Shown: positions 12,664 to 45,869 of the stretch, in pieces | Layout: every line of letters starts with the position of its first letter | How positions within the stretch are numbered: the first letter of the stretch is position 1 | Assembly (NCBI GenBank): GCA_016471375.1 | Contig: WGLZ01000039.1 | Span: 62,001-126,000, forward strand | Source of the DNA: Cyanobacteria bacterium RI_101 | GTDB lineage: Bacteria; Cyanobacteriota; Cyanobacteriia; Cyanobacteriales; Microcystaceae | Direction: 5' to 3' | DNA length: 64,000 nucleotides | Position numbers and translations under genes: made by a program | Notes under the pieces: generated by a model | What the model was told of the DNA's origin: nothing | What the model saw: the letters and a program-made list of their open reading frames with translations, nothing else | Databases searched by the model: none

Positions 12664-12718
12664 GAAGCCAGTATCTCATCAATCTGCAAACCGTTATAGA
12701 ACCCGTTGCCGGGGAAAT

Positions 12719-13129
12719 TTAGACGGAAACGCCGGCGGCTTGCAAACGGGCCCGAGCCTTTTTCAGCGCCTGACCGGCTTGAATTTGCTTGGGCTTGTCG
12801 CCGCTCCGGTTAGCTTCTTCCAATTTGCTTTGAGCTTGGGCGTAGTCTTGACGGGCGGCGTCGGCGTTAATGGCGGAACCCAGTTCGGCGGAGTTCACCA
12901 GAACTTTGACTTCGTTGTTTTCCACCTCGGCGAAGCCCCCCATGATGGCGATATTTTGCCAATCCTTGCCGGGTCGCACCCGCATCACGCCGGTGTCCAG
13001 CGCCGTCAGAAGGGGAGCGTGGTTGCTGAGAATCCCGAGCTGACCGGTGGTGCTAGGGAGGATAACTTCCTGCGCTTGCTCGTCCCAAACCACTTTATCG
13101 GGCGTGATCACCCTTACCGTTAATGTCAT
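12719..13129 (-). CDS. atpC: ATP synthase F1 epsilon subunit
   Basis: The 136-residue protein starts [22 protein letters not shown] and has the epsilon beta-sandwich ([21 protein letters not shown]) and a C-terminal helical hairpin with [13 protein letters not shown] and [12 protein letters not shown]. It is part of the central rotor stalk on the thylakoid and cytoplasmic membranes and moderates ATP hydrolysis. In cyanobacteria it is co-transcribed with the beta subunit gene in a cluster separate from the other ATP synthase genes, which is the order seen here. An unusually wide gap (312 bp) with repeats separates the two. Confidence 0.97.
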
Positions 13130-27173: not shown

Positions 27174-29845
27174 AGAATTTATCAAAGGAAATAATTCAAG
27201 AGCATCTATTAACTGAGTTGCAATCTCAAGCTCAAGACTCGAAAGTCTTTGTCCAAGAAAATTCTTTTGGCGGTCTTATTCTCCAGATTGTCACCTCCAT
27301 CTTTGAAAATCGGGCGTGGACAGAGCGGGAAGCCCTTATTGATAATTTACTTGAACCGTTAAATTTAGATCTCGGTCAATCCCCCATTTTTGATTACACT
27401 CTATTAACTCCCTCAGAGAAAGCCCAGGAACCTCCGCCGACGATTCAATTACCTTTATGGTCTGATGTTTTAGAAGCACCGGATTTAGATCCTTCTTTTT
27501 CACCGGACGGCGTCAGTTTTGATCGGGATGATGAAAATTCTGGGGCTTCTATTGTCGCTTTTTACTCCTTTAAGGGGGGCGTTGGACGCTCTACGGCGTT
27601 AGGCCTTGTCGGCATATCCCTAGCTAGCCGCAATCGGAGAGTGGTGATGATTGATTTTGACCTAGAAGCGCCGGGTTTAAGTATTCTTTTTCAACCGAAT
27701 CTCTGGCAAGACAATGGTAAAAATCAGGTCGGCGTTATCGATTATCTTCACCAACGATACCTGAATCCTGATGAAAATATTCCTAGTATTGAGGATTGTA
27801 TTCAGTCAATTAATATTTCAGGTCGCGGAGAGCTATTTTTGATTCCCGCAGGGGAATATACGGAAAATTATGTGCATCGATTAGCGCAATTAGATCGAAT
27901 CGCTTGGCAATCTTTCTATAAAGGAACGAAAAATCCAATCCATCAACTCATTGAGGATATTAAACAACACCTAAACCCCGATGTGATCCTGATTGACGCC
28001 CGCCCTGGTTTTAACGATACCGGAGCCATCGCCTTACTGGATTTAGCCGATACGGGAATTATTTGTTTTTCTCCAAGCGATCAAAGCTTTAATGGACTAC
28101 GCTGGGTTATTCAAGCCGCCCGCAAACAACATAGTTATAAAAACAAGCCAGATCTCCGTTTTCTGCTTACTCCAATGCCTGTGGTTGAAGAAGACCAACT
28201 CAATATTTGGTTAGCGAAGGTGGAAAACTGGATTGAAGAAAATTGGGGTTTACCTGATGATATTACTGTTAAGGAAATTTATTATAAAATTTCTTATAAT
28301 CCCAAGATTACCACACTATCAAACTTGGTGGAAGTGTCGAAAACATTACTAAATGATTCATTAATAAATGATTATTGGCCCATCGTTGATACTATCGATG
28401 CTGGCTTGCCGGATCTCAAACCAATTCTTCCCATTACTTATAACCGAAGTCCTATACTTAACGAACTCCATTTTGAATCTGCTACGGCGCAGGAATTAAG
28501 TCCTGAAGCCATTCCTGATATTTTTCAAAAGACAGAAGATTTTGTTCAATTAATTCGACTGCGAACTTGGCTGATTCAAGGCGCCAAAGGAACAGGAAAA
28601 AGTATTTTATTTAGGCTTTTTGTTGAACAGCCAGAGCCAGCGAAGGCGTTAGCAAGTTTAGATCAAGATTTGTCTCGTTGTCAGTTTATTCCCGCCCACG
28701 GAAAATCCAGCTTGAAACCATCAATTCTCGGCCCTGAAAGTCTGACAAGCTACGAGCAACAAGTCGGAGAGAATCACTGGGGAGACTTTTGGATTAATTA
28801 CGCAATTTTACAGTTATGGGCAAGCCTAGAGGAAGTCAAGAATTTTCTCCCCATCGCTTCTGACTTACCTTCTCTATCCTCCCACTCCGCCATCGTTAAT
28901 TGGTTGGTTAAGCAAGCTCAATCTCCCCACTCCGCTCCCCAAGCGATTGATGGGTTAAGTCAAATTGATCAATGGTTACGCTCGCAAAATCGAAGCGTTT
29001 GGCTTTTATATGATGAACTCGACACGGGTTTTGGTTTTGGAGAGGAGAGCTACGCCCGTAGAAAAAGAGCTTTAGAGGCGCTTTTAGCTTGGTGGTTAGA
29101 GAGTGGCGCAAGTTTAGGGAGCATCACGCCTAAAATATTTTTACGGGAAGATATTTGGCGCCGGCTCAATTTTGAAAACAAGGGACACTATTCTAGTAAA
29201 ACCTTGCTACTTAAGTGGGAAGAGGCCGATTTATGGAGACTCATTTTGCGTCAAAGCTTGAACAAATCCCTGACTTTTAAAAATCTTCTACAAGAACGAG
29301 TTAATGTGACGATAGACCGGCTAGAAATATTAGAATTAAGCCAACTGCGTAAAAGTCTTTATCCTCTTTGGGGCGAACGTATGGGGAGGGGGAAAAAAGC
29401 ATTCACCTATAATTGGGTGCGAACCCGAATTAGTGATAGTAATGGCAATTCTTTTCCCAGAAGTCTAGTTCTGCTTTTGGAGCAGGCGGTGGAACAGGAA
29501 AGAAAATTCGATACGGAATACAGCGCCGACATTATCTTACGATCAAAAGCATTAACCACCGCCTTTCCTCGGGTTTCGGAGCAGAGAGTGGATGAAGTCG
29601 GTAACGAATATCCCGAGCTAACAGAGCTTTTGAGCCGTCTTGAGGGACAACGATCCCCCATTGATGAAGACAGGCTCGCTCAGCTTTGGTCCGCAGACAA
29701 GAGCGAAGTATCTGGTTATGTGAAAGATTTTGTAGAAGCAGGGATTTTCCAGAAGCGTCCTCGTTCGGGGGAAGATTCCCAGGCTTATAGCGTGGCTGAA
29801 CTCTATCTCTACGGTTTAGGAATGACTCGTAAAGGACAAAGATAA
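27170..29845 (+). CDS. Double P-loop protein: KGGVGR-type (ParA/MinD-like) ATPase fused to a second AAA/STAND-like ATPase
   Basis: An 891-residue protein. Residues 1-110 are an N-terminal domain of unknown fold. A deviant-Walker ParA/MinD-like domain follows, with FYSFKGGVGRSTALGL (residues 131-146), MIDFDLEAPGL and LIDARPGFNDTG. A second nucleotide site has GAKGTGKSILFRLF (471-484) and Walker B VWLLYDELDTGF (610-621). The C terminus (about 790-891) looks like a winged helix. The KGGVGR variant is typical of large ATPases found in bacterial defence and conflict loci. The gene is co-translated with the HEPN gene (ATGA) with AAGGAG upstream. Its function is not established; I infer a two-gene sensor/effector module. 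Confidence 0.85.
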   Translation: MKNLSKEIIQEHLLTELQSQAQDSKVFVQENSFGGLILQIVTSIFENRAWTEREALIDNLLEPLNLDLGQSPIFDYTLLTPSEKAQEPPPTIQLPLWSDVLEAPDLDPSFSPDGVSFDRDDENSGASIVAFYSFKGGVGRSTALGLVGISLASRNRRVVMIDFDLEAPGLSILFQPNLWQDNGKNQVGVIDYLHQRYLNPDENIPSIEDCIQSINISGRGELFLIPAGEYTENYVHRLAQLDRIAWQSFYKGTKNPIHQLIEDIKQHLNPDVILIDARPGFNDTGAIALLDLADTGIICFSPSDQSFNGLRWVIQAARKQHSYKNKPDLRFLLTPMPVVEEDQLNIWLAKVENWIEENWGLPDDITVKEIYYKISYNPKITTLSNLVEVSKTLLNDSLINDYWPIVDTIDAGLPDLKPILPITYNRSPILNELHFESATAQELSPEAIPDIFQKTEDFVQLIRLRTWLIQGAKGTGKSILFRLFVEQPEPAKALASLDQDLSRCQFIPAHGKSSLKPSILGPESLTSYEQQVGENHWGDFWINYAILQLWASLEEVKNFLPIASDLPSLSSHSAIVNWLVKQAQSPHSAPQAIDGLSQIDQWLRSQNRSVWLLYDELDTGFGFGEESYARRKRALEALLAWWLESGASLGSITPKIFLREDIWRRLNFENKGHYSSKTLLLKWEEADLWRLILRQSLNKSLTFKNLLQERVNVTIDRLEILELSQLRKSLYPLWGERMGRGKKAFTYNWVRTRISDSNGNSFPRSLVLLLEQAVEQERKFDTEYSADIILRSKALTTAFPRVSEQRVDEVGNEYPELTELLSRLEGQRSPIDEDRLAQLWSADKSEVSGYVKDFVEAGIFQKRPRSGEDSQAYSVAELYLYGLGMTRKGQR

Positions 29846-31733: not shown

Positions 31734-34700
31734 TTAATCCGCCTCGTCAGTTTCTTCATCAGCGCCGCTGGCGCTTCCTAAAATTCGTTGGCGGTCTGCT
31801 GGCTCAGTGATGCCGTAGAGATCTAAGACTTTGTTGTCAATTTCGGCGTCGATGCGGGCGACCTCATCCAGTAAGGTCTGAATTTCCCGGCGCCGTTCTT
31901 GTTCGACGGCAAAAAAGAGGGTTAGGTCTTCGGCTTCGTAGGGTAAAACGGCTTGATTTTTGATTTCGTCCCAGGTTTTGCCTTGCCATTGAGGCAGTTT
32001 TAAATACCCGAGAAGATAGCGCCGAATTTCTTCATTTTCGACCACAAGCCAGAGTTTGTTATTTTTGAGGACAATACTGGTGGGATAGCGCTCGGGGATA
32101 TAGATATTTTTGCCAAGGGAGACCGCTAGGTTACAGCGTCCGGGGATGGTTAATAACCCGGCGGCTTTGGCGTCAAAGAGGTTTAAGGTGGACAGGTTGG
32201 GGTTCCGGCGCTGAACTTCCGTCAGGAGTTGGTCGTAGGGAATATCGATTAAAACGGCGCCGTTCCGTTGTTGACGAATGGTGTAACCTTGTTCTCGAAA
32301 GGCGTTAAGTTCAGCGTTTTTGGCTAGAATCTGATCAACTTTTTCCACCAGCGCCGCTTGGGTTTGCGCATTGGCGGGGTAGATGGGAAGTTGCCGAAAA
32401 GTTGCGGGGTTAATATTAACGTTGTCAAATTTTCTAGAATACCAGTAATTGAGAAGATATGAATTGAAAAGAGCTAAAATATATTTTATGTTGTAGCTGG
32501 TTTTATTTTTGGAGATAATGTTGTTAAAGTTATCTCGATTATAGAATCCTGATTCATCAAAGGTTGCAACTAATCTTCGAAAAAGGGACTTATTTCTTAA
32601 CCTTACAAGAATAATTTTAGGAGAATCAAAGTATTTGGCTTCTCGCGGGCACCAAAGCCAAGTTCCATATTTTAAGTAGGGTTGAGATTTTCCCCATCTT
32701 AAGTCATACCGACCAATAAAAGCACTTCCATCCAGAAGGGGTTTCCATTCCGGTTCGTTGACTGGGAGATCCCGCCGACTTTTAATGTAAAGATTCGCAT
32801 TGCCGTCCGCTTTAGTTTTATAAGGAATAATTCCCTGGGCACTTTCCGTTACATCCCCCAACCGCAAAATTTCTTTTCGAGCGCCGTTACCGTTAACCGG
32901 CACTAAACAGGCTTGTTCAATTTTTTCAATCAGGTCGTCATAGCGAATATTGATCTCGTAGCTGGCATTATGGAGCCAGAAAGACTGTTTTTGATGACTG
33001 GTCTCGCTCCAGATTCTTTGAGTCAGTTTATCGAGACTATCCCGAAGTCCTAGAATCTTAATTTGAGTGTCTTGGTTTTGACGCTGACTTTCATCCGCTT
33101 CTTGGGTTAAAAATAGCAATACACAATCCACGGTGGCGTCGGGCCAAATGCCCTGGGGTAAATCCACAATTTGCTCAATTTTTCCCCCTTCTAAAAGCGC
33201 CTGCCGCAGGGTGGCGGTATTTTTCCCCATGAGATAGGTATTGGGCGTGATAAAACCAAATTTACCGCCCTTGGCCAATAGTTCAAGACCTAGTTTCATA
33301 AAAAAGACATAGGTATCCGGTTGGCCATAAAACACATCAGCGTAGTCATTACGAAGAATATCTTTATAACTATCGCTCAAACCGGCGCCGTAGGGCGGAT
33401 TAGCGACGACAAAGGCGAAACCATTGGCGTAGGGCGTATTCGGGGAACGGCTTTTAATTTGATCCACCTGATCGTTTTCGTGAGCGATCAAGGTGTTGAA
33501 CAGGAGGGAACGATAGGCGCCAGTGGGTCGGGCTAGGGCGTCTACATTATAAATATGAAAACGTTGAATTGTCGGGCGTTGCCCTCGATCATGGGCCAGT
33601 TTGACCAGATCTAAAACCTGCATCAGCACATTAACTTCCGACAAATAACAGGCGAAAGGATTGAGGTCAAAGCCATACAGATTACTCTGCACCCGCTCCA
33701 AAACCGAGACCGGATCATCAATTTGCTCCGCCTTATCCTTATAGGTCGCCACTAACCGCTTTGTCGCCTCCACTAAAAAGGAACCGCTACCGCAAGCCGG
33801 ATCAATCAGACGTTTATTGGCGCCGATAATGCCGGCGCCGGTTTGATAACCCACCTCATCCAGAATATAATTAACAATTTCCGGGGGCGTATAATATTGT
33901 CCCTTATCCTTCTTCTCCTTGCGGTCAACATAGGTGCTATAAACCGTTCCCACAATATCGGAATCCACCCCGGCAAAATTAAAACGGCTCAGTTGATGTA
34001 ACGTCATTACCAACTGGTGGCGGTCTAACAAAAACCAGTTAAATAACTCCCGTCCCGTAAAAAAATGGGCGTAGATATTTTGGGCGTTATTATAGGCCAT
34101 ATCTAGCAGGGGATCATACGGATTACCCGTGGCAAAAATCCAATACCGCTCAATCACCGCTTGCCAATTTTTGAGACCGCCGTCGGAGACAAAACGGTGG
34201 GGAAAAACGCCCTTATCCTCGCAGACCCGAATCAACAATAAACGAATAAAAACCACATAGGCCGCTTGCAAGGCAAACTCGTCTTGTCTTTGCGCCTCCT
34301 CTAATCCCCCTAACATGGTTTCCTGCAATAGCGCCGCCCAAACCGTGTAGTCGTCGTAAACTTGAATATCCTGACGATAATCCTGCCGTAGGGTCGCCTG
34401 CCGTTGATGCCAAGCAAACACTTTTTCAATATAAGATTTCAGCAAATCGTCTAGGGGAGCGTAACCTTTTTCTATCGTCGAGGGCGTTCTCGGTTTTTTA
34501 ACGCTGTTGGCATGTTTGCGCTCAAAAGCTTGGGTTAAAATTGCCAGAACATCGGCAAAGACTTCCTTGACGCTAATATAGGCTTTCGGGTCTTGCTCTA
34601 GGCGCTGAAAAATGGCGTCAATGGCTTCTTGATCATCTTTATTGAAATCCACCAAGGTTTGAATTTGATTAGCGAGGTAACCTAAAACCCGCTCCCGTAG

Positions 34701-35516
34701 TTTTTGAATTTCCTGAAGCGCCGTCTCTGGAGCGTCATCGGTAATACGATTTCTCCGATTTTGATAGTCTTGATAACGGGTCAAATGATTAGCCAGTAAG
34801 CGCCGAGCATGGCGCTGAAGTTCTAGGACTAAAGACTGTAACGCCTCGACTAAAACACTCTCATTACTACCGCCATTCCCCAACGGTAACGCCTGCTCCC
34901 GCCAAGCTTGTTCATCCAGGGCCAGATCCGCCTCTAAGCGTTGCAGACTGGTGAAGGTTTCCTTACGAAATAAATCAAAAAGATCCTGAAGCGCCTGTCG
35001 AGTTTCTGTCGAAAGCGCCGAAGCGCCGCCCTGATTCCATTCCTGAATAGCGGCGGGAATATCTAGGTCAATCAATCGGTTGGGCGTGTTTTGGTTGTCA
35101 AATTGCCAGGCGGTTAACTGCTTGCCATTGGTTAACCAACCTAAACTCACCCCCTTTAAGTAGCTCCGCAGTTGGAAGAGATGACTATTCGTATTTCCTA
35201 AATCGAAAGTTAAGGACAGAGACGTGCTCTTATCCTCCACAATGAAACAGGTTCCATAGACCGAATCCCTCGGCGCAAAATCAGGACGGCTTAGGTCTTG
35301 CTTCTGTTGGTTATAAACCCGATCTCCCGCCTCAAATCCTAATAACCCTAGCAGGGGACTGGTGATCGCCATATCCACAATGGCGGCCTCATCTCCGCTT
35401 CGTTCCCCGTCCGGGCGAGCCAGATAGTTTAAAAAATCGGCGCCGGCAAAGGTCTTTTGGGTAAACAGACCAAAAAAGGCGCTTAAAAATTCGTCAAAGT
35501 TTGTCGGATCGGTCAT
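31734..35516 (-). CDS. Type IIG restriction-modification enzyme (fused nuclease, N6-adenine methylase, target recognition)
   Basis: The 1260-residue protein begins with a PD-(D/E)XK-like nuclease: Pro78-Asp79 in SRPDFAP and Glu94-x-Lys96 in FIVEDKST. A gamma-type N6-adenine methylase follows: KGQYYTPPEIVNYILDEV, SAM motif LIDPACGSGSFLVEA (near residue 572) and catalytic NPPYG (near residue 705). The segment from about residue 895 to 1040 should be the target recognition domain and its DNA (about 32420-32800) is conspicuously AT-rich, unlike the rest of the gene. A single polypeptide both cutting and methylating makes it self-sufficient. A BREX PglX-like role is less likely because no other BREX gene is near. 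The specificity is unknown. Confidence 0.88.
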   Translation of the reverse strand: MTDPTNFDEFLSAFFGLFTQKTFAGADFLNYLARPDGERSGDEAAIVDMAITSPLLGLLGFEAGDRVYNQQKQDLSRPDFAPRDSVYGTCFIVEDKSTSLSLTFDLGNTNSHLFQLRSYLKGVSLGWLTNGKQLTAWQFDNQNTPNRLIDLDIPAAIQEWNQGGASALSTETRQALQDLFDLFRKETFTSLQRLEADLALDEQAWREQALPLGNGGSNESVLVEALQSLVLELQRHARRLLANHLTRYQDYQNRRNRITDDAPETALQEIQKLRERVLGYLANQIQTLVDFNKDDQEAIDAIFQRLEQDPKAYISVKEVFADVLAILTQAFERKHANSVKKPRTPSTIEKGYAPLDDLLKSYIEKVFAWHQRQATLRQDYRQDIQVYDDYTVWAALLQETMLGGLEEAQRQDEFALQAAYVVFIRLLLIRVCEDKGVFPHRFVSDGGLKNWQAVIERYWIFATGNPYDPLLDMAYNNAQNIYAHFFTGRELFNWFLLDRHQLVMTLHQLSRFNFAGVDSDIVGTVYSTYVDRKEKKDKGQYYTPPEIVNYILDEVGYQTGAGIIGANKRLIDPACGSGSFLVEATKRLVATYKDKAEQIDDPVSVLERVQSNLYGFDLNPFACYLSEVNVLMQVLDLVKLAHDRGQRPTIQRFHIYNVDALARPTGAYRSLLFNTLIAHENDQVDQIKSRSPNTPYANGFAFVVANPPYGAGLSDSYKDILRNDYADVFYGQPDTYVFFMKLGLELLAKGGKFGFITPNTYLMGKNTATLRQALLEGGKIEQIVDLPQGIWPDATVDCVLLFLTQEADESQRQNQDTQIKILGLRDSLDKLTQRIWSETSHQKQSFWLHNASYEINIRYDDLIEKIEQACLVPVNGNGARKEILRLGDVTESAQGIIPYKTKADGNANLYIKSRRDLPVNEPEWKPLLDGSAFIGRYDLRWGKSQPYLKYGTWLWCPREAKYFDSPKIILVRLRNKSLFRRLVATFDESGFYNRDNFNNIISKNKTSYNIKYILALFNSYLLNYWYSRKFDNVNINPATFRQLPIYPANAQTQAALVEKVDQILAKNAELNAFREQGYTIRQQRNGAVLIDIPYDQLLTEVQRRNPNLSTLNLFDAKAAGLLTIPGRCNLAVSLGKNIYIPERYPTSIVLKNNKLWLVVENEEIRRYLLGYLKLPQWQGKTWDEIKNQAVLPYEAEDLTLFFAVEQERRREIQTLLDEVARIDAEIDNKVLDLYGITEPADRQRILGSASGADEETDEAD

Positions 35517-37258: not shown

Positions 37259-37391
37259 CGAGGGGACAAATCGCTCCTATTAGAGGTAGAAGTGGGCCGT
37301 TAGGGTAACGAGAGGGCTTGATTCCTAACGCCTTCTCCCTTGGGTCTAAGATAGTATAGCCCTTGAACCGCCTTTTCCCTCGGGATTGTCC

Positions 37392-39095
37392 ATGCCCTCC
37401 TCCCCCGGCCCCTACCAAAGTCGTCTCTTTAATTTCCTCAATCGCCAGTCCCTACGTCTCCGAGACCGTCTGGGGGAGACGTTTCGCCATTTGCAATCCG
37501 CGGCTCAACTGGGCGCTCAGGCGCTCCTTTATCCCTTCTATTGGCTCCTTCATCCCCACCGCTGGACGGGGCCGCTCCTGACTCCCGGCTACTCCGAACC
37601 GCAACTCCCCCCTCAGACCGGCCCCTCCCTGAGCGACGAACCCCTGAGACAGGTTTTAGAGCAAATTAGACCGTGGTTTAACGAGGAGAATTCCCCGGAA
37701 CTTGAGACTCGCGCCCGAATATCCCCCGCGCCTTTTCAACCGCCTTCAAAGCCCTTGGACGCCCTTGAACTTCGCTCAAGACAAAACACTCCCCTAGACT
37801 TCACTCAGGGCAAAACGCTCCCTGAGCGGAGTCGAAGGGCGCGTCTCTCTCTGGCTCCCCCTCGCCCCGTGGTCATTTCCGGCGCCGTTTTAGCCCGTTT
37901 TGAACAGCGGTTTTCTCCTCCGGCCCTAGCCCCCGCTCCCGGCCTTTGGCCCTTTCGGCGCCGCGCGCTTCCGGCGGATTTGGTGATTTGCGGCGTCGCT
38001 AGTCGTCTGTCAGACCGCCAGTTGATTTTAACCACCGACGATAATCAAACCTTAGACCTCCTCTCTTCAGAGCAAAGCCAAGCCCTAGCCCAAAGCATCC
38101 GGCTCGGTTTAGCGGATTTTTATTACCAGCGCCGTCTCTCCTGGGCGCTACAACAACAGACCTGGGGCGCCATTTCTTTAGTAAATCCAGAGACGGATGA
38201 ATTAACTCCGCCCCTGCGTTGGCTCTGGGGCGGTCTCCACTGGTGGGAACGGGGCCCTTTGACTTTACCTCCCGCGTTCTCCAAACCCGAAGCGCCGGTT
38301 TTAGCGCCGCTAACAGACCTGGCCCAAACTCTCCGGCGCCGTTTGCCAAACCTAACCCAGCCCGCCTTAGTCCATTTACCCCAGTCTTTGCCTCCCCTTC
38401 CCGCCCTAGGGGAAATGATGGGCGCCCCAGGGCCGGTTCTAGAGCGGGTCGCCTCGGCGCTGGCCCCCGTAAAAACGGCGCTAACGGAAAAATTGTCCCC
38501 TCCATTGGACGGGTCTGATCCCTTCCAAATTCAGGTTTTAATCCAAGCCGCCATCGCCTACTTCTTCGGATCGGGGACAACCCCTGCCTTGGGCGCGTCT
38601 TCTCCGGCGCTGTCGGAGTCGGAACCTGATTCTCTTTGGCTGTCTTGGCAAGACTTAGTCAGCCCGTCTGCCTTACCCTTAACGCCCGGAGAGTCGGCGC
38701 CGGTTCTGCCGCCCTCCCAGACGTTAGCTCCCGCCGCGCTCCGGCGCCGAAAACGCCCTCCCGTTTCCCCCGGCGCCGTCGTCCTTTCTAAGCCCGACCC
38801 CGCCGCCCCGGCGCCGGCTGTCCATCCTCGGCCCTCAGATCCCATTCCCGATTTTTGGCTAGAACCCGGCGCTCTCCCCTCCGTCTCGACCTTGGCTTCT
38901 AGGGAGAAACCAGACTTAGACGCCGCCTTTGATTGGATTGAAATCGCCGCTCAGCCCGTTGGTTACCATAAACATCCCCTGGAACTGATTCTAGAAGCCT
39001 TAGATCGTCTAGTATTGGCGCTAGAAGACGGGTTACGCTGGCTATGGCGTCGGGTCTCCCCTTTGTTTTCCCCGCGTTCTAAAAAGCTTTCCTAA
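37392..39095 (+). CDS. Large Pro-rich hypothetical protein with embedded repeat sequence
   Basis: I take the ATG at 37392 (567 residues). There is no recognisable enzymatic domain. The N terminus is basic (RLRDRLGETFRHLQS). Long Pro/Ala/Ser-rich tracts alternate with short ordered blocks (LADLVICGVASRLSDRQLIL-like beta segments at about 195-250, WRLWRRVSPLF at the C terminus). At about residues 124-150 the reading frame runs through a dispersed DNA repeat (37762-37839), giving a peptide rich in Arg and Gln (LELRSRQNTPLDFTQGKTL) that is probably not part of the original fold. It might be a cyanobacteria-specific protein of unknown function. Confidence 0.65.
   Translation: MPSSPGPYQSRLFNFLNRQSLRLRDRLGETFRHLQSAAQLGAQALLYPFYWLLHPHRWTGPLLTPGYSEPQLPPQTGPSLSDEPLRQVLEQIRPWFNEENSPELETRARISPAPFQPPSKPLDALELRSRQNTPLDFTQGKTLPERSRRARLSLAPPRPVVISGAVLARFEQRFSPPALAPAPGLWPFRRRALPADLVICGVASRLSDRQLILTTDDNQTLDLLSSEQSQALAQSIRLGLADFYYQRRLSWALQQQTWGAISLVNPETDELTPPLRWLWGGLHWWERGPLTLPPAFSKPEAPVLAPLTDLAQTLRRRLPNLTQPALVHLPQSLPPLPALGEMMGAPGPVLERVASALAPVKTALTEKLSPPLDGSDPFQIQVLIQAAIAYFFGSGTTPALGASSPALSESEPDSLWLSWQDLVSPSALPLTPGESAPVLPPSQTLAPAALRRRKRPPVSPGAVVLSKPDPAAPAPAVHPRPSDPIPDFWLEPGALPSVSTLASREKPDLDAAFDWIEIAAQPVGYHKHPLELILEALDRLVLALEDGLRWLWRRVSPLFSPRSKKLS
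37762..37839. repeat. Dispersed CTTCGACTCCGCTCAGGG-type repeat inside a coding frame
   Basis: An arm CCCTTGAACTTCGCTCAAG (37762-37780), CCCCTAGACTTCACTCAGGG (37791-37810) and CCCTGAGCGGAGTCGAAGGG (37820-37839) are arranged so that the last two form a 20-bp inverted repeat with 16 of 20 pairs and a 9-base loop. The same family occurs in intergenic DNA at 12.6 and 13.2 kb. Here it lies in frame within the 567-residue gene. Confidence 0.75.
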
Positions 39096-39124: not shown

Positions 39125-39394
39125 ATGAACCCGAACCCTCCTAAACCGGATAAAGACGACTTGCTTTACCCCCGCAGTCGCTATTACGGGGAATTTAAGC
39201 CCGAAAATCTCGTGTTTAACGCCAATCTTCAGGAGTTCGCTCAACGAGTTAGTTATATTTGCAACTTGGAAACCGCCGGAAAAATTAGCACTCTGGCGGC
39301 CTATGACCAAATCAAGGCGCTTTGGAAGCAACTTAGAGATAGTAAAACAGAATTAGGTATCGGCGGAACTGAAACGAGAGACGAAGAAGACTGA
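39125..39394 (+). CDS. DUF7219 family small protein
   Basis: An 89-residue soluble protein with the family core YPRSRYYGEFKPENLVFNAN, LQEFAQRVSYICNLETAGKI and YDQIKALWKQLRDSK. It is acidic at the C terminus. DUF7219 is a small cyanobacterial family without known function. It lies 29 bp after the large Pro-rich gene and is followed immediately by the truncated exoD copy. Confidence 0.8.
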   Translation: MNPNPPKPDKDDLLYPRSRYYGEFKPENLVFNANLQEFAQRVSYICNLETAGKISTLAAYDQIKALWKQLRDSKTELGIGGTETRDEED

Positions 39395-39400
39395 ACAAGA

Positions 39401-39597
39401 CGACTCTCTTTCGGCGACCCTATGCGGTTCAAATTCTCCCAGGATATTGAAGCGCTTCTGCGCAAGCTCTCCTAAACCTCCCTGACCCTTCAAGACTTGC
39501 TCTCCGTCACCGCGGAGCGGGGCTTTTCCTTTCTGATCGCCCTGTCTGATCGCCCTGCTGGCCCTACCCTTCATTTTTCCCATTCCCCCCGGTTTAA
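39401..39597 (+). pseudogene. Truncated, broken copy of exoD 5' end (direct repeat of 42848-43031)
   Basis: From CGACTCTCTTTC through GGTTTAA this segment matches the 5' leader and first 50-odd codons of the intact exoD at 42870, with about a dozen mismatches by eye. It has an ATG at 39422 and the same protein start MRFKFSQDIE. Codon 18 is TAA at 39473-39475 where the intact gene has CAA. A 13-bp unit TCTGATCGCCCTG is tandemly duplicated at 39532-39557, shifting the frame. Homology stops near 39597. It is therefore a dead partial duplicate and not a gene. Confidence 0.92.
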
Positions 39598-39769
39598 GGG
39601 GAGTCGGGCCGCAGTCTCTAGTCCCTTTTACACTGACTTTTCAGAGGCGGAGCGCCCTTTTGCGGACTTTGACAGATTTTTTCTCTAGGCTCGGAATAAG
39701 ACATGAGAACTTAAATCCAACAGGAGTCTTGACTCTGGTTGACGTTATTCATGAATTTGTATTGGATGT
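39598..39769. other. Gap after exoD remnant, nothing recognised
   Basis: This 172-bp stretch lies between the end of exoD homology and the stop of the ZorB-like gene. I see no gene, repeat or terminator hairpin with a T run. Confidence 0.55.
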
Positions 39770-40396
39770 TTAACGGGTTTTACCCGGCGGAATAAAGCGA
39801 ATTTCAATCCGGCGCCGGGATTGATCGGGTTGGCGATTCAGCGCCGCGATTTTTCCCTGAGGATCATAAAGTTGACCGGCGGAATAGGCTCGAAAGTCAA
39901 TATTTTTAAACTGTCCTCCCTGACGGAGTTGCTGAATGACCGCTAGCGCTCGCATCAGTCCGAGATCGGCGTTAGAGCCTGGGGTTAAGGTTGTCACAGA
40001 TAGTTTATTTTGGGCGACTGGCTCTAGCTTTTGGTCAAGATTACTTAAGCGACTGTTGGCTTGCCCATCGGTATGGCCGATAACTTGAATAAAATCAATA
40101 GCGCCTTCTTTTTCTTGAATGATTTTTTCTAGAGTGGGTACAACTTGATCGTTGAGATAGCCTTTCAATTGGGGCGTTAATTCGGCGCTACCAGAAGGAA
40201 ATTTAAAATTTCCCGATTTTTCATCAATGACGATAGGAGCGGCGCTTTGTAGTTTGCGGTTGAGTTCAGTGGCTTGCAGGAGCGCCAGAAGCAAAAATAG
40301 ACTCAGAATCATAAAGGCGTTAGCCATTAAGTCTGTAAAAGCGGGGAAAACATTCAGAACTTCAGATTTTTTCCGGTAGCGTTTAGAATGAAACAT
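39770..40396 (-). CDS. ZorB-like / MotB-type OmpA-domain stator protein
   Basis: The 208-residue protein has a short cytoplasmic N terminus, one transmembrane helix (FTDLMANAFMILSLFLLLAL) with a buried Asp at residue 22, and a periplasmic OmpA/MotB-like domain (FIQVIGHTDGQ ... NADLGLMRALAVIQQL ... QSRRRIEIRF) expected to bind peptidoglycan. The helix Asp is the ion-carrying residue in MotB and ZorB proteins. It follows the ZorA-like gene by 30 bp on the same strand. Zorya ZorB and generic OmpA/MotB proteins are similar; the partner's long tail favours the ZorAB type. No ZorC, ZorD or ZorE gene is near. Confidence 0.8.
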   Translation of the reverse strand: MFHSKRYRKKSEVLNVFPAFTDLMANAFMILSLFLLLALLQATELNRKLQSAAPIVIDEKSGNFKFPSGSAELTPQLKGYLNDQVVPTLEKIIQEKEGAIDFIQVIGHTDGQANSRLSNLDQKLEPVAQNKLSVTTLTPGSNADLGLMRALAVIQQLRQGGQFKNIDFRAYSAGQLYDPQGKIAALNRQPDQSRRRIEIRFIPPGKTR

Positions 40397-40426
40397 GATC
40401 AGCAGTCTTTTGATCTAAATAGAGCG

Positions 40427-42409
40427 TTATCGAGGATTTTGGGGCAAGTTTAAATCTTGAATTAAGCTGGTCAACTTGGACAGTTTTAAGCTGATATCTT
40501 CAAGATGAGAGAGGCTGACGTTAAGCGAGTGGCTAAGATTAGCTGTCTCCTGCTTATTTTTGCGACTTTCCAGCGCCATTAACTCTCCGATCTCTTGAGT
40601 CTGCTTTTGGGAGTCTTGGGATAGGGTTAAAGCAAGCCGCTGGCTTAAGTCAATCAGGTCTTGTTTGAGATTTAAGCTATCTTGATACTGCTTAAAGACG
40701 TTAACTAAGGCGCTCAAACTTCCCTGAACGGCTTCGAGCTGACGAGCACCGGACTGTCCCTGATCATTGATCTGCTCTAGACCCTGGGAAAAGTTTCCGG
40801 TTAACTTAACTAGTTCTCCTTGGATTTGCTCTGTCCTTTGGGTTTGGGTTTTCATGCCTTGATAGAGGTCTTGTAATTTCTGGGCGTTGATTTCCATCTC
40901 TTGGGAAAAAGTTGTGATTAGAGCGTTAACATTATCCTGAAGAGTTGACAGAGATTGAGCTTGGGATTCCTTCATTAGCTCGATCAGCGCCGCCAGTTTC
41001 CCTTGAATCGCCGCCAGTTCTTTCTCTTCCTGAATTAACCGTTGTTGATTGAGGGTGATAATTTTCCCCGATTGTTGATTGAGGCGCTGGGCGGATTCTC
41101 CAAGGGTTTGGAGCGTGGGGATAGTGGTTTGAAAATCCTGAATAATCTGGGCAAAGGATTTATTTGTTTCGCTTAAACTGGCGGTAAACTGGCTAAATCG
41201 GTCTAGATTTTCGGACGCTTCTTTCAGGCACTCTGGAAATTGACTCACCGCTAGGGATTCCGCTGTGTTTAGATAATTTTGAGAGCTTTTCTCAAATCTT
41301 TCTCCCGATTGTTGAAGTTGAGCACTAAGAATAGTAATTGCGTTGCTTGCATTACTATTGCTGTTGATAAGCTCTTGAATTTTTGTAGTAAAGTCGTTGA
41401 TTTTAACTTGCCCACTGTTAATAAGTTCCTTGATGGTTTCGGCAAACTGAGCTTGAGTGCTGTGCAATTCGTTCGCCCAATTAAAGAGAGCCTCTTGATT
41501 ATTCTTAATCGATGCAGCCGCACCCTTGATTTCGACTGCAGAACCGCTAAAGGATTCAGCACCACCACTAAAGGATTTAGCTACAGCCTCTAACTTACCA
41601 AAGGATTTCTCAATAGACTCGGCGCTGGTTTTCATAATTCCAACTTGCGTTTCAAAGGTATTAACGGCGCTGGTAAAACTTTTAATACTGGTTGTCAGGG
41701 AAGGGACGAAGTTCTTTAAAACAGTGGTTAGAACAGATTCGAGAGAGTGCTCGTTGTCTGACTTTTGACCATAAAGAATTGTGTTGAGTAGGCTTTTTGC
41801 CTTGGCTTCAATATGACTTTCTACTGGTGAGAAATCAATTTCTAAATGCTTTTCTAAGTTGATAAACAAATTATATTTTGCCGTCTCCGTGTTCCAGAAT
41901 AAGTTGAGAATCGTTAGCAGAGAACTTAAGGAAATGGCTACCAAGCTGGTGATAAAAGCGATTCCCATACTCTGGAGCGGCGCTTTTAGATTCGCCACCA
42001 CCAGACTAGCGCCGTCTGCGTCTTGGTTGAGAATGGCGCTAATATCGCCCAGGTTAAAGGTAATGCCTAAAAAAGTTCCCAACAGACCAAAAGCAATGAG
42101 CAGGTTCGGCAATAACTGACAAAAGTTATCCCAATAGTCATAGCTCAAACCGAACAGTTTTTCTTGACTATAAAATTTTTCCAGAATATCCGTCGTGTTG
42201 GTAAAATCTAGTCGGGCGGCGGATCTTTTAAACTCCTGCTTGATCTCCTCGATTTTCCCAGTATCTAAATGTTTTAAGTTCTGACTCAGCGCCTTAAGGG
42301 TATGGTACAAAGAAAAACGAACCCAAATGGCGACGGCGCTGGGGACAATCATCAGCGCCGCTATAAAAATAAGGATAGGAGTAGGGAGGAGTTGTAGCCA
42401 GGCGGTCAT
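40427..42409 (-). CDS. ZorA-like / MotA-TolQ-ExbB channel protein with long coiled-coil tail
   Basis: I start at the ATG at 42409 (660 residues), where the coding strand has GAGGTGAT with a 5-base spacer; a GTG at 42418 and an ATG at 42415 lie inside that ribosome site. TM helices are at about residues 10-31, 99-120 (LLIAFGLLGTFLGITFNL, the MotA/TolQ/ExbB signature) and 148-172. The rest, about residues 200-660, is a long Gln/Ser-rich helical tail with many coiled-coil-like stretches (IEKSFGKLEAVAKSF, QAQSLSTLQDNVNALI). In Zorya the ZorA tail is a rod hanging into the cytoplasm. The gene is AT-rich relative to its flanks. Defence function is inferred from this architecture only. Confidence 0.8.
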   Translation of the reverse strand: MTAWLQLLPTPILIFIAALMIVPSAVAIWVRFSLYHTLKALSQNLKHLDTGKIEEIKQEFKRSAARLDFTNTTDILEKFYSQEKLFGLSYDYWDNFCQLLPNLLIAFGLLGTFLGITFNLGDISAILNQDADGASLVVANLKAPLQSMGIAFITSLVAISLSSLLTILNLFWNTETAKYNLFINLEKHLEIDFSPVESHIEAKAKSLLNTILYGQKSDNEHSLESVLTTVLKNFVPSLTTSIKSFTSAVNTFETQVGIMKTSAESIEKSFGKLEAVAKSFSGGAESFSGSAVEIKGAAASIKNNQEALFNWANELHSTQAQFAETIKELINSGQVKINDFTTKIQELINSNSNASNAITILSAQLQQSGERFEKSSQNYLNTAESLAVSQFPECLKEASENLDRFSQFTASLSETNKSFAQIIQDFQTTIPTLQTLGESAQRLNQQSGKIITLNQQRLIQEEKELAAIQGKLAALIELMKESQAQSLSTLQDNVNALITTFSQEMEINAQKLQDLYQGMKTQTQRTEQIQGELVKLTGNFSQGLEQINDQGQSGARQLEAVQGSLSALVNVFKQYQDSLNLKQDLIDLSQRLALTLSQDSQKQTQEIGELMALESRKNKQETANLSHSLNVSLSHLEDISLKLSKLTSLIQDLNLPQNPR

Positions 42410-42418
42410 GGTCATCAC

Positions 42419-42869
42419 CTCAGAAAGAAGTACAAAAATTTTGATCTTTAGAGAAAGCTAATTCTTTCTCCCTATAGCGGTCGTAGATGATTCATTCGTA
42501 AATCAAGATCCTTATGCTCAAAGAGAGATTCACCACCCCGCCCCTTCGGGGCGCCCCTCCACAGGAGGGGAATCATCAAATTAACGTGTTAGAGCTTAAT
42601 TCCCCTCCCCCGGAGGGGTGGCAGGCGTAGCCTGACGGGGTGGTCAAACTTTGGGATGGGCACAAGATTCATAAACGATTTGCGATGACTATATTGTATG
42701 TAAACATCTCGAAAGTATTCAAGTTATTTTAAGATATTTTCATACTCTGACAACGACCTCCCGCAAGACCAGCGCCGGTGAAAACAGCCCCTAGCGCCAA
42801 CGCTGAATGTAGAGCTGGGGCAAAAATGCTACAGTCTCAGAGGAAAGCCGACTCTCTTTCAGCGCCCCT
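42419..42869. other. 451-bp gap between divergent zorA-like and exoD, with palindromic repeat
   Basis: The left part, next to the ZorA-like start, is AT-rich and should hold its promoter and ribosome site. The centre holds a large palindromic repeat (42529-42645, listed separately). The right part from 42720 precedes the exoD leader. Its 42848-42869 end is repeated at the broken exoD copy. No open frame is convincing. Confidence 0.65.
42529..42645. repeat. Long palindromic GC-run repeat
   Basis: The arm begins CACCACCCCGCCCCTTCGGG and contains CCCTCC and GAGGGGAAT. The opposite arm has AATTCCCCTCCCCCGGAGGGG, then GGCAGGCGTAGCCTGACGGG and GTGGTC, so the outer ends CCACCCCG and CGGGGTGG pair. 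The right-hand core GGAGGGGTGGCAGGCG...CTGACGGGG recurs near 52.31 kb. This is an intergenic repeat of the same class as others in the window. Confidence 0.75.
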
Positions 42870-43454
42870 ATGCAGTTCAAATTCTCCCAGGATATTGAAA
42901 CGCTTCTGCACAAGGTCTCCCAAACCTCCCTGACCCTTCAGGACTTGCTCTCCGTCACCGCGGAGCGGGGCTTTTCCTTTCTGATCGCCCTGCTGGCCCT
43001 GCCCTTTATTTTCCCCATTCCCCCCGGTTTAACCGGCGTCGCCGGCGCCGTCATCGCCCTCTTGGCCGTCCAGATGATGCTGGGTCGAAAGCGCCCCTGG
43101 TTGCCGTCCCGTTTCGCCCGCGTCGCCTTTCCCCCGGCGCTGGCGGCCAAACTCCTGACCCAAATCCGGGGGCTGACCCGAATATTAGAGCGCCTCTGTC
43201 GTCCCCGACTCCTACCCCTCGCCACCAATCCCCAGATCTGGCGCTTGAACGGTTTAGTGATCGCCTGGCTTACCTTTTTACTGGTGCTCCCCATTCCCTT
43301 CACCAATCCCCTACCGGCGCTGGGCATCCTCCTGCTGGCGGTGGCCATGCTAGAAGCCGACGGCTTTTTAATGTGCCTGGTTTACGGCTGGACAGCCAGC
43401 ATTAGTTTAGGGTTATACCTAGCGGGGCGGCACCTTTGGAGCCTAGTGTTTTAG
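42870..43454 (+). CDS. exoD: ExoD family exopolysaccharide synthesis protein
   Basis: The 194-residue membrane protein matches ExoD: SQTSLTLQDLLSVTAERGFSFLIALLALPFIFPIPP, a conserved GVAGAVIALLAVQMMLGRKRPWLP, and four or more hydrophobic helices. ExoD proteins affect exopolysaccharide production in rhizobia; the mechanism is unknown. Its stop is shared with the FHA-PBP gene (TTAG, 43451-43454). A broken duplicate of its 5' end lies at 39401-39597 on the same strand, so only this copy is functional. Confidence 0.9.
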   Translation: MQFKFSQDIETLLHKVSQTSLTLQDLLSVTAERGFSFLIALLALPFIFPIPPGLTGVAGAVIALLAVQMMLGRKRPWLPSRFARVAFPPALAAKLLTQIRGLTRILERLCRPRLLPLATNPQIWRLNGLVIAWLTFLLVLPIPFTNPLPALGILLLAVAMLEADGFLMCLVYGWTASISLGLYLAGRHLWSLVF

Positions 43455-45691
43455 TTAACGATAGAAAGGGTATATTGTCCCCACAATTCCGCCGCCAGGG
43501 CGCTACTGCCCTCCGTGGGACGGTTATCGTCGTTGCCGAGCCAGATGCCCGTCACCCGTTCCCGGCTGGGCGCCAGACCGATAAACAGTAAATCCACCCC
43601 TTTATTCGTCGTTCCCGTTTTCCCCGCGGCGCCGTAACCAATACTGGCGGCCTTGCCGGTGCCGTTTTCCACCGCCTCCCGCAGGAGCATGACCATCGTT
43701 TTAGCGGTTCCCGGAGAGACCGCCCGGCGCTGTTGACTGGGGTCGCTCTCAAAACTATAAATTTCTCGACAGGTCTGCCAGCGGTCTGTTTGCTCGCAAT
43801 CGCTCCCGTCCCGGATTCGGCGAATGGCGTGGGGTTTTTGCCAAACGCCCCCGTTGCCGATGGCGCCGTAGGCGCCGGTCATCTCCAAAAGTCGGGTTTC
43901 GCTTTGCCCCAAGACCAGACCCGGCACGGTTTCCAAGCGGGAGCGGACGCCCATTTTCTCCGCTAAAGCCGCCACTTTGGGCAGTCCCGCCTGACGGGCC
44001 ACCCGGAGCGCCACCGCGTTTTCCGACTGGGCGAAGGCTTGCGTAAAAGAGGCGTCTCCTTCGGTGCGCTCGCAACCGCGGTAATTTTGACCCTGCCAAC
44101 TCAGGGGCGCGCAGGAATAGGAACTGTAGGCGGGAATGCCGGCCTCCAGCGCCGCGGCGTAGGCGAAGAGCTTAAAGGTGGACCCCGGTTGCCGCAGGGC
44201 TTGGGTGGCTCGGTTATACTGACTTTTTTGGTAATCGGCGCCGCCCACCAGGGCTAGAATTTCCCCAGTGCGGCTGTTGAGGGTCACTAGGGCGCCCTGG
44301 CTGTATTTAAATTCTTTACCTTTGGTCTGGATATTTTTTTTGAGTAAGGCTTCGGCTTTCTGTTGGGTTTTTAAATCCAGGGTGCTCTCGACAATGAAAT
44401 TGCCTTCGTTGGCCACGTCTTCTCCCAAAAGCTCTTGTAGTTCCGTGAAAATATGGCTGTAAAAATAGGGCGCCTGCAATTTAGCCAGCGCCTGGGTGGC
44501 CTTGGGGCTAACGATCACGCGAGAGCGCCGGGCCCGGTTGGCCTCGGTTTCGTCGATCATGCCCAGTTGGGCCATCCGCTCGATAATGCGATTCCGCAGA
44601 GCCACGGAGGTTTCGTAATCCTGCACCGGGTTGTATAAATTCGGCGCCGGGAGCATGGCCACCAGGGTCGCCGCTTCGCTAATGTCCAACTCCCGCGCGG
44701 ATTTATCAAAATAAAACTGGGCCGCGTCTTCAAAGCCGTAATTACCGGCGCCGAGATAGACCCGATTGAGGTAGGTTTTTAAAATTTCGTCCTTGCTATA
44801 GACCATCTCCAACTTAAGCGCCACCAACATTTCCCGAATCTTGCGGCCGGCGCTGTTTTCCCGCCCCACTTCGCTAAATAAACTGCGGGCCAACTGTTGG
44901 GTAACGGTGCTAGCGCCCTGTTTGACGCCCTTTTCCTTGCGGTTGACCATAATGGCCCGGGCGACGCCGTAGGGATCGACGCCGGGGTGCCAATAAAAGC
45001 GGGTGTCCTCAGAAGCGATCACCGCCTGGGGGAGGTAGGGCGAAAACTCTTCCAGGCGGTCAAACTCCCGGTGAATTTCCTGTTTGACGGGATTTAAGGG
45101 CGTTTTCCCGTCCCCGGAATAGACCACCACCGGCCCCGTAATCCCCAAGGGCCAAGGTTTAACGGGGATTTTGCGCCATTCCCAAGCCAGCGCCGCCGCG
45201 GCGAGGGTCGAGACTAATCCGAGGCCGAGTAACCCTAAACGAGCGAAACGTAGTCCCCAGGGCAAAGGGGAAATAAAGGTTAACTGAGGCGCGTCCGCTA
45301 AATCCGGGGGCCCCAAGCTAATGACGTCGCCGTGTTGTAGGTAGGCGCTTTTAAACCGGGCGGCGCCGCGGTAAATGCCGTTGGTGGAGCCTTCGTCTTG
45401 AATCCAAAAGCGCCGTTTGCAGTCGGGGTCTCGGTAAAGGACGCAGTGGGCTTGGCTGACGATGGGATTTTGCAAGAGGATATCGCTGAGGCGGGAACTG
45501 CGACCAATCACATAGCGCTCCGCCACCAGGGGATAGGTTTTCCTGGGTTGGTTCATCTCGTCCCGAATCCGCAAACGGGGAACTTTCGCCCCTTTTTTAA
45601 CGGCGCTTTTGCCGGATTCTAGGGGTTTAAGCCGTTGCGCCGCTTGGGTGGGCGCTTGACTAACGGGGCGTTTCCGAGAAGAGCGGGCCAT
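43451..45691 (-). CDS. Class A penicillin-binding protein with N-terminal FHA domain
   Basis: The ATG at 45691 gives 746 residues (a TTG at 45700 is less likely). After a basic tail, residues about 60-135 form an FHA phosphothreonine-recognition domain (RYVIGRSSRLSDILLQNPIVSQAHC, DEGSTNGIY). A transmembrane helix follows at about 145-170. Then come a GT51 glycosyltransferase (EDTRFYWHPGVDPYGVARA, GASTVTQQLARSLF) and a transpeptidase with SxxK in RQPGSTFKLFAYAAALE, SxN in SENAVALRV and KTG in GAAGKTGTTNKG. It polymerises and cross-links peptidoglycan. Attachment of an FHA domain suggests control by Ser/Thr kinases, an inference. Confidence 0.92.
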   Translation of the reverse strand: MARSSRKRPVSQAPTQAAQRLKPLESGKSAVKKGAKVPRLRIRDEMNQPRKTYPLVAERYVIGRSSRLSDILLQNPIVSQAHCVLYRDPDCKRRFWIQDEGSTNGIYRGAARFKSAYLQHGDVISLGPPDLADAPQLTFISPLPWGLRFARLGLLGLGLVSTLAAAALAWEWRKIPVKPWPLGITGPVVVYSGDGKTPLNPVKQEIHREFDRLEEFSPYLPQAVIASEDTRFYWHPGVDPYGVARAIMVNRKEKGVKQGASTVTQQLARSLFSEVGRENSAGRKIREMLVALKLEMVYSKDEILKTYLNRVYLGAGNYGFEDAAQFYFDKSARELDISEAATLVAMLPAPNLYNPVQDYETSVALRNRIIERMAQLGMIDETEANRARRSRVIVSPKATQALAKLQAPYFYSHIFTELQELLGEDVANEGNFIVESTLDLKTQQKAEALLKKNIQTKGKEFKYSQGALVTLNSRTGEILALVGGADYQKSQYNRATQALRQPGSTFKLFAYAAALEAGIPAYSSYSCAPLSWQGQNYRGCERTEGDASFTQAFAQSENAVALRVARQAGLPKVAALAEKMGVRSRLETVPGLVLGQSETRLLEMTGAYGAIGNGGVWQKPHAIRRIRDGSDCEQTDRWQTCREIYSFESDPSQQRRAVSPGTAKTMVMLLREAVENGTGKAASIGYGAAGKTGTTNKGVDLLFIGLAPSRERVTGIWLGNDDNRPTEGSSALAAELWGQYTLSIVN

Positions 45692-45869
45692 GGCGGACAA
45701 AAACAGAGGAGAAAGGGGGCGATTTCAAGCCGTAGAGACTGGATTGCCGGAAGTGTAACTGATTGTATCGGATCGACGCCCAAGGAACGACTCCCATTCA
45801 GCGCCGTCTCTATTTTTTGTTAGGGCGAAATGTCTTGCTTTCAATGATCCTTACCACTGGAAAAAGACG

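What the first reader, a model, noticed from the sequence alone, without database searches (positions are those of the whole stretch)
39401..43031. ZorAB-like motor inserted between direct copies of the exoD 5' end
The two motor genes (39770-42409) are bracketed by about 190-bp direct repeats: an intact exoD leader and start at 42848-43031, and a broken copy at 39401-39597 with an early TAA and a 13-bp tandem duplication. The copies are alike apart from about a dozen mismatches by eye. The simplest reading is that exoD was the integration or duplication point for the module. That gives a molecular footprint for gain of a defence-like cassette and a possible looping-out route for its loss.
Basis: partly seen in the sequence, partly recalled or inferred. 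Interest (0 to 1): 0.78.

Follow-up and report, generated by a model that had tools for sequence, protein, structure and literature searches.

The report
Moved motor genes scar two loci
In a cyanobacterium, a pair of membrane-motor genes lies between an intact exoD gene and a broken copy of its front end, and a leftover of the motor upstream of a hydrogenase gene suggests that the pair was shifted within the genome by a DNA rearrangement rather than newly gained as a phage-defence cassette.

Summary
In detail: an exoD 5' copy (39397-39597; stop codon, 13-bp tandem duplication) repeats 42845-43031 with 11 substitutions in 184 aligned bases and brackets a ZorA/ZorB-like pair. The reading is partly supported. 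The 172 bases between the broken copy and zorB, plus zorB's last 49 bases, recur (215 of 227 alignment columns identical) on contig C92 between miaA and hoxE. There they carry a hoxE promoter-like block, disturbed in the window copy. So zorB and hoxE were probably once neighbours, and 39597/39599 is a breakpoint between exoD and hoxE-upstream DNA. Best explanation: illegitimate relocation or copying of the motor within the genome, duplicating ~200 bp of exoD and leaving a zorB stub. Tandem duplication followed by a second rearrangement explains nearly as much. I saw no integrase, transposase or Zorya partner (13 neighbouring proteins scanned). Looping out is possible, but the longest identical run would leave exoD broken. 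No empty site could be examined: one genome per species is held. Side finding: in 18 of 27 genomes with a ZorA homologue a Tubulin_2 gene lies within 2.5 kb; a tubulin-like/OmpA-like association was already in print in 2010.

The parts
37386..39095 (+). 569-aa protein, no Pfam family; its homologue in G001 (33-35% identity) is the immediate divergent neighbour of the penicillin-binding protein gene
39125..39394 (+). DUF7219 gene, intact; its stop codon ends 2 bases before the repeat
   Evidence: PF23856 E 7.5e-32; sequence
39397..39597 (+). broken copy of the exoD 5' end: 25 bp of leader and the first ~57 codons, TAA at 39473, 13-bp tandem duplication 39532-39557
39599..39769 (-). segment of hoxE upstream DNA lying downstream of zorB; second copy at G000:C92:7213-7390
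39770..40396 (-). zorB-like gene, 208 aa; its last 49 bases (39770-39818) recur as a stub on C92 (about 7164-7212)
40427..42418 (-). zorA-like gene, 663 aa from a GTG start, MotA/ExbB-type membrane part and long helical tail
42471..42695 (.). dispersed repeat element (58 matches in this genome with itself included, both strands, some places listed twice)
42696..42844 (.). spacer without another copy found in the genome; probably the exoD promoter region (inferred)
   Evidence: no significant similarity to relatives' exoD upstream regions
42845..43031 (+). intact copy of the repeated exoD leader and 5' end
42870..43454 (+). intact exoD, 194 aa
   Evidence: PF06055 E 1.1e-52
43451..45700 (-). 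class A penicillin-binding protein with FHA domain, converging on exoD

Best explanation
The repeats are the scar of an illegitimate rearrangement inside the genome. Shown: the broken exoD copy is fused at 39597/39599 to DNA that also stands upstream of hoxE on contig C92, together with the last ~15 codons of zorB. Inferred: the motor pair stood upstream of hoxE (zorA-zorB-hoxE). A piece of up to 3.2 kb, reaching from 45 bp before the hoxE start through zorB and zorA, was moved or copied into the 5' part of exoD, between DUF7219 and the penicillin-binding protein gene. About 200 bp of exoD was duplicated at the join, by repair of staggered breaks or by replication template switching. The downstream exoD copy stayed whole and the upstream one decayed. 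At the old site zorA and nearly all of zorB were lost, which brought miaA next to the zorB stub and hoxE. The motor is probably a MotAB/ZorAB-type ion-driven complex anchored to the wall by ZorB; its job in this cell is not known from these data.
For: Chimeric junction and second copy on C92: 227 alignment columns, 215 identical, 5 substitutions, 7 gap columns. The C92 copy starts 8 bases after the miaA ORF and reads as the ZorB end RRRIEIRFIPPGKTR and a stop (sequence). A weight matrix of a hoxE promoter block from five relatives scores the C92 segment 14.9, reached by 11 of 5000 random sequences, and the window copy 9.8. Divergence of the two duplicated pieces (11/184 and 5/220) is compatible with one age (Fisher P 0.073). 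Left flank (569-aa gene) and right flank (penicillin-binding protein) are neighbours in G001 too, so the motor sits inside an old neighbourhood. miaA is not found in the 15 relatives' hoxE loci read, which reach 1.5 kb upstream. G001 has exoD, DUF7219 and zorA at three separate places.
Against: The direction of the move rests on one promoter motif, which I noticed by eye before testing it. Plain local alignment of the segment with relatives is not significant (summed score reached by 16 of 200 shuffles). G001, the relative with the nearest exoD, lacks the block (7.0), and seven more distant relatives score 5.5-11.8, three of them above the window copy. DUF7219 next to exoD, zorA next to exoD, and zorA next to hoxE were each seen in no other genome compared. 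In G001 the two flanks are head to head, here tail to tail, which needs further inversions; 8 of 9 relatives' penicillin-binding loci do not show the neighbour at all. The right-hand junction of the insert is not identified. The motor's G+C is in the lowest 3% of the window, which would also fit gain from outside.
Confidence: 0.5

Rival explanations
1. Tandem duplication plus rearrangement. The old order was exoD-zorA-zorB-hoxE. The unit from exoD codon ~57 to 45 bp before hoxE was duplicated in tandem; the new joint (hoxE leader to exoD codon ~57) is the one seen at 39597/39599. An inversion or translocation then cut through the redundant second copy, its other end lying between DUF7219 and miaA, leaving exoD' beside DUF7219 and the zorB tail plus hoxE beside miaA.
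For: Explains both ~200-bp duplications as the two ends of one lost copy, in two events. Partial duplications 3.5-4.9 kb apart exist elsewhere in this genome (C70, C53).
Against: Needs the 569-aa gene and the penicillin-binding protein gene to have come together by chance, although they are neighbours in G001. None of the relatives' DUF7219 loci held (11 with up to 1.5 kb flank; 4 of the same genomes with about 8 kb flank) shows miaA at E 1e-15.
Confidence: 0.27
2. A site-specific integrative element that targets the exoD 5' end and carries a replacement 5' end.
For: Geometry: one intact gene on one side, displaced 5' fragment on the other.
Against: The only long ORFs in the 3.2 kb between the repeats are the two motor genes, so there is no room for an integrase gene. 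The repeats are long and 6% diverged rather than an identical core. The left end is hoxE-upstream DNA.
Confidence: 0.05
3. exoD was duplicated first and one copy was decaying; the motor later landed beside or inside the dead copy with no causal link.
For: The exoD pair is somewhat more diverged than the hoxE-upstream pair (6.0% against 2.3%, P 0.073).
Against: The similarity stops at the joint with the hoxE-upstream segment, and no exoD 3' part of the broken copy was found.
Confidence: 0.13
4. Assembly artefact.
For: 102-contig assembly.
Against: The copies differ from each other by several substitutions and indels, and the joints lie inside a 139-kb contig and a 33-kb contig.
Confidence: 0.03

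Closest known systems
Zorya anti-phage systems (ZorA/ZorB core)
   Same: MotA/ExbB-like ZorA with long helical tail; ZorB with one membrane helix bearing an aspartate and a MotB-like wall-binding domain
   Different: PADLOC scores are weak (best E 4.6e-8 for ZorB, 6.7e-7 for ZorA); no ZorC/D/E/F/G among the neighbours scanned; most homologues in related genomes lie by Tubulin_2 genes instead
FtsZl1 (Tubulin_2) predicted membrane-remodelling system of Makarova and Koonin 2010 (PMC2875224; passages read)
   Same: Tubulin_2 proteins, found in cyanobacteria among others, with OmpA-family wall-binding proteins in the same predicted operons; the ZorB homologues here are of that kind and lie beside Tubulin_2 in 18 of 27 genomes
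   Different: The words MotA, TolQ and ExbB do not occur in that paper, so the ZorA-type motor subunit is not named there; this window's motor has no Tubulin_2 neighbour and its genome no PF13809 match
Insertion by illegitimate recombination or replication template switching with local duplication (recalled; only a search listing seen)
   Same: Ectopic DNA joined without long homology, local direct duplication at the target, fragment of donor left
   Different: Inferred from one genome; the right-hand junction and the donor's original left side are unknown
Partial gene duplication followed by deletion
   Same: Truncated gene copy some kilobases from the intact one; two other cases in the 464 kb compared
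   Different: Here the joint carries a third locus (hoxE upstream) whose other copy lies on a different contig

Membership tests
Zorya | ZorA and ZorB homologues side by side | tested here: met
   PADLOC ZorA2 E 6.7e-7 and ZorB1 E 4.6e-8, no Pfam family at E 0.001; weak but paired
Zorya | Type-specific partner: ZorC+ZorD, ZorE, or ZorF+ZorG (passages of PMC8565338 and PMC11890865) | tested here: not met
   13 other proteins between 26715 and 52130 scanned with PADLOC; no Zorya partner among the rows shown (at E 0.01, at E 0.001; for the 31734-35516 protein the best 25 of 79 rows are shown). The LivH-like and penicillin-binding neighbours were scanned with Pfam only. Not every ORF of the window, and not the rest of the genome, was scanned.
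Zorya | Membrane aspartate and wall-binding ZorB domain | tested here: met
   Asp22 in the invariant FTDLM motif of 9 aligned homologues; the 16 Foldseek hits at E 0.001 are MotB, PomB and MotS periplasmic domains or parts of a flagellar motor, TM by query 0.38-0.46; model pLDDT 77.7
Zorya | Protection against phage | not testable with these tools
   needs plaque assays
FtsZl1/Tubulin_2 membrane-remodelling system | Tubulin_2 (FtsZl1) gene in the locus | tested here: not met
   no PF13809 match in this genome; a distant tubulin-like family related to G008's 528-aa protein is on contigs C3 and C38, not beside the motor
Site-specific integrative element | Integrase or excisionase inside the bracketed DNA | tested here: not met
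   only the two motor genes are long ORFs between the repeats
DNA transposon | Transposase and terminal inverted repeats | tested here: not met
   only the two motor genes are long ORFs; none of the 13 inverted-repeat pairs listed joins the two ends of the insert

The most novel reading that the evidence does not exclude
The pair is the membrane motor of a cyanobacterial filament system: a tubulin-like (FtsZl1/Tubulin_2) protein, or in other species a tubulin-like plus FtsA-like operon, driven or anchored by a ZorAB-type ion motor. The association of FtsZl1 with OmpA-like proteins was printed in 2010 (PMC2875224); that the OmpA-like partner is the B subunit of a rotary ion motor would be the new part. 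In this species the two-gene motor unit has been detached from such an operon and shifted between loci by a duplicating rearrangement that leaves gene-end scars.
Probability: 0.25. Interest if true: 0.66.

Novelty: new member of a known kind. Interest (0 to 1): 0.4.

Why it matters
It shows how a direct repeat that looks like the footprint of a gained defence cassette can instead record movement of a resident gene pair, with traces of both ends in one genome. The by-product, ZorAB-type motors beside tubulin-like genes in cyanobacteria, suggests that orphan ZorAB calls in this group may often not be phage defence, and adds a motor to a membrane-remodelling system predicted in 2010; it names genes to test.

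Tried and rejected
Empty-site test: no second genome of this species was found; the same-genus relative with the nearest exoD (G001) is 72% identical in ExoD and its exoD, DUF7219 and zorA are scattered.

Mobility by plasmid or phage: ZorB has matches under 60% identity and under 80% coverage on 19 plasmids (Rhizobium 13, Sinorhizobium 3, Microvirga 2, Tistrella 1) and none in the phage collection.

Which exoD upstream region is ancestral: comparison of both upstream regions with nine relatives gave nothing convincing (best 16 and 18 of 200 shuffles). Conservation of the 172-bp segment upstream of hoxE by plain alignment was not significant.

ZorB tree: 10 of 13 inner branches unresolved (16 rows), so the origin of the motor is not settled by phylogeny. 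The ZorA model is poor (mean pLDDT 54.5) and was not used for a fold search. No PDB sequence match at E 0.01 for either protein.

A single inversion with staggered breaks: rejected, because exoD with its right flank stands on the motor's contig and miaA stands at hoxE.

The draft also overstated how many orthologues share Ala at codon 11.

Full report
What was checked. The repeat is real. The repeat finder gives a 148-nt ungapped direct repeat at 94% (39397-39544 and 42845-42992) and a following 66-nt block at 89%. A global alignment with the tandem duplication gapped gives 11 substitutions in 184 positions. In the whole genome (3.75 Mb, 102 contigs) the intact exoD 5' end matches only itself and the broken copy at E 0.001, the latter with E 4.8e-68. 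The broken frame stops at 39473 and carries a 13-bp tandem duplication. The repeat starts two bases after the DUF7219 stop codon. The gene names are right: ExoD PF06055, DUF7219 PF23856.

A second footprint. The 172 bases between the broken exoD copy and zorB are not filler. They match G000:C92:7213-7390 at 94%, and the match runs on into zorB: 39599-39818 against C92:7390-7164, 227 alignment columns, 215 identical, 5 substitutions, 7 gap columns in one 6-bp and one 1-bp gap. On C92 this segment begins 8 bases after the miaA ORF (PF01715), reads as the last 15 residues of ZorB and a stop (my reading), and ends 45 bp before the start of hoxE (PF01257). So the DNA downstream of zorB in the window is also the upstream region of hoxE, and 39597/39599 is a joint between exoD and hoxE-upstream DNA with no long shared sequence.

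Which place is the old one. Reading the hoxE upstream regions of six relatives, I saw a block TGTAAMAATRARG in five (G002, G003, G004, G008, G009), 123-210 bp upstream of the start of the HoxE match. A weight matrix made from those five scores the C92 segment 14.9, at 85 bp from the hoxE start; 11 of 5000 first-order random sequences reach that. The window copy scores 9.8, because its 6-bp gap falls right behind the core of the block. G001 scores 7.0, seven more distant relatives 5.5-11.8, the reverse strand of the segment 1.6. Plain alignment is weaker: the summed score against four relatives is reached by 16 of 200 shuffles. I take hoxE as the native home of the segment, with moderate confidence. 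miaA is not found in the 15 relatives' hoxE loci, which reach 1.5 kb upstream, so miaA beside hoxE is private to this genome among those compared.

The receiving locus. In G001 the homologue of the 569-aa gene at 37386-39095 (33-35% identity) is the direct divergent neighbour of the penicillin-binding protein gene, about 200 bp away. Here the same two genes flank DUF7219, exoD', motor and exoD, but tail to tail. I read this as one old neighbourhood that has been turned round since. Of the 9 relatives' penicillin-binding loci read, G001 is the only one that shows the neighbour (1 of 9; two of the nine are cut by contig ends or the stretch taken). DUF7219 next to exoD, and zorA next to exoD, are seen in none of the 37 other genomes searched for exoD and DUF7219 (zorA), and zorA next to hoxE in none of the 21 others searched for hoxE, by comparing listed coordinates.

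Two models remain. (A) Relocation: the motor was copied or moved from upstream of hoxE into exoD with about 200 bp of exoD duplicated, and the old site later lost zorA and most of zorB. (B) Tandem duplication of an exoD-zorA-zorB-hoxE-leader unit, then a rearrangement through the redundant copy that left its two ends, exoD' and zorB tail plus hoxE leader, at different places. Both need two events. For (A) speaks that the two flanks share a neighbourhood in G001, and that none of the relatives' DUF7219 loci held shows miaA. For (B) speaks that partial duplications occur elsewhere: in 464 kb of own sequence compared with itself (window plus 20 stretches of 20 kb), 44 pairs of at least 80 bp and 80% were found, 32 of them multi-copy, 7 of middle depth, and 5 in regions matched only once: the exoD pair, a 483-bp repeat of a ParA-like gene's 5' end on C70 (96%, 3.5 kb apart, with a cytosine methyltransferase-like gene between), two blocks of a kinase/FGE-like duplication on C53, and one C53-C77 match. 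The gene names of C70 and C53 are my reading of the translations. The divergence of the exoD pair (11/184) and of the hoxE-upstream pair (5/220) does not differ significantly (P 0.073), so one date is possible. At codon 11 the broken copy has Ala, as have the three closest orthologues (G001, G009, G008) and 6 of the 13 printed, where the intact copy has Thr, as have 3 of the 13; this hints that the intact copy has changed too.

Looping out. The repeats share identical runs of 51, 25 and 21 bp. The 51-bp run lies downstream of the TAA, so a crossover there would leave the stop codon in exoD. Only crossovers in the first ~75 bp would restore the gene, and they would remove the spacer 42696-42844 that probably holds its promoter (inferred). 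A clean excision route is therefore less likely than the bare geometry suggests.

What the motor is. ZorB has the invariant FTDLM membrane motif (Asp22), and the best structural matches of its model are MotB, PomB and MotS periplasmic domains, with modest TM-scores. ZorA has the membrane part and a long, low-confidence helical tail. PADLOC recognises both weakly as ZorA and ZorB. Zorya systems carry ZorCD, ZorE or ZorFG beside ZorAB (passages of PMC8565338 and PMC11890865). None appears among the 13 neighbours scanned. I therefore do not file it as Zorya. The motor's G+C is 43.6% against 55.1% for the window, in the lowest 3% of windows of that size, while its density of the genome's abundant RGCGCC/GGCGCY words is close to the window's (6.8 against 7.8 per kb).

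An association with tubulin-like genes. Of 58 genomes (this one included), 27 have a ZorA homologue. In 18 of these 27 a Tubulin_2 (PF13809) gene over the family's cut-off lies on the same contig, 2.1-2.4 kb away (recount). The nine exceptions are G000, G001, G006, G008, G009, G029, G033, G052 and G057. In two of them, G008 (Snowella sp. ULC335bin1) and G001, a different operon with a ~500-aa tubulin-like and a ~1090-aa FtsA-like gene lies within about 7 kb of zorA; in G009 and in this genome those genes exist but elsewhere. In print: Makarova and Koonin 2010 (PMC2875224, passages read) described this tubulin-like family as FtsZl1, with OmpA-family wall-binding proteins in several of its predicted operons, and proposed a membrane-remodelling system; MotA, TolQ and ExbB do not occur in that text. 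PMC9871819 (one passage) equates FtsZ-like proteins of that paper with Tubulin_2. Searches for Zorya or ZorAB with tubulin or cyanobacteria, and for a set of related terms, listed no paper on a ZorAB-tubulin link (listings, plus passages of PMC12904381, where tubulin occurs only in a reference, and of PMC12505986). Supplementary files were not searched.

Limits. Relatives are one genome per species, mostly unnamed; the nearest with exoD is 72% identical in ExoD. The control for repeat frequency covers about an eighth of the genome. The direction of the move rests on one motif. The right-hand end of the insert could not be placed.

Noticed in passing
zorA loci of relatives, e.g. L065, L066, L070 (Tubulin_2) and L061, L059 (tubulin-like plus FtsA-like): ZorA homologues lie 2.1-2.4 kb from a Tubulin_2 gene in 18 of 27 genomes that have ZorA; Snowella (G008) and G001 have a different tubulin-like plus FtsA-like operon close by. 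FtsZl1/Tubulin_2 with OmpA-like partners was described in PMC2875224.
   Followed up: partly
L150 (G000:C70) 8851-9333 and 12357-12839: A 483-bp direct repeat of the 5' end of a ParA-like gene, 96% identical and 3.5 kb apart, brackets a cytosine methyltransferase-like gene (names are my reading of the translations).
   Followed up: partly
L132 (G000:C4) 2091-2219, copy of parts of window 43520-43695: A decayed fragment of the 3' part of the penicillin-binding protein gene that adjoins exoD lies upstream of a gene that looks like rpsT (104 bp at 86%, then 33 bp).
   Followed up: partly
window 1-64000: No GCGATCGC (HIP1), but GGCGCC 169, AGCGCC 185 and GGCGCT 144 times, and CGGCGCCG is the commonest 8-mer; resembles the GGCGCC-rich Calothrix PCC 7103 of PMC4390886 (passages). 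My maximal-order Markov test did not put GGCGCC among its top five palindromes.
   Followed up: partly
window 42471-42695: Dispersed, hairpin-rich repeat with CCACCCCG...CGGGGTGG ends, dozens of matches in the genome.
   Followed up: no
window 31734-35516: 1260-aa PglX/type IIG-like DNA methyltransferase, about 4 kb from the motor.
   Followed up: no
window 26715-29845: Two adjacent genes match PADLOC candidates PDC-M28A and PDC-M28B/C.
   Followed up: no
L133 (G000:C3), L134 (G000:C38), L135 (G000:C77): This genome has an operon like Snowella's tubulin-like/FtsA-like one at the end of contig C3, and a second tubulin-like gene and a second FtsA-like gene on two different contigs.
   Followed up: partly
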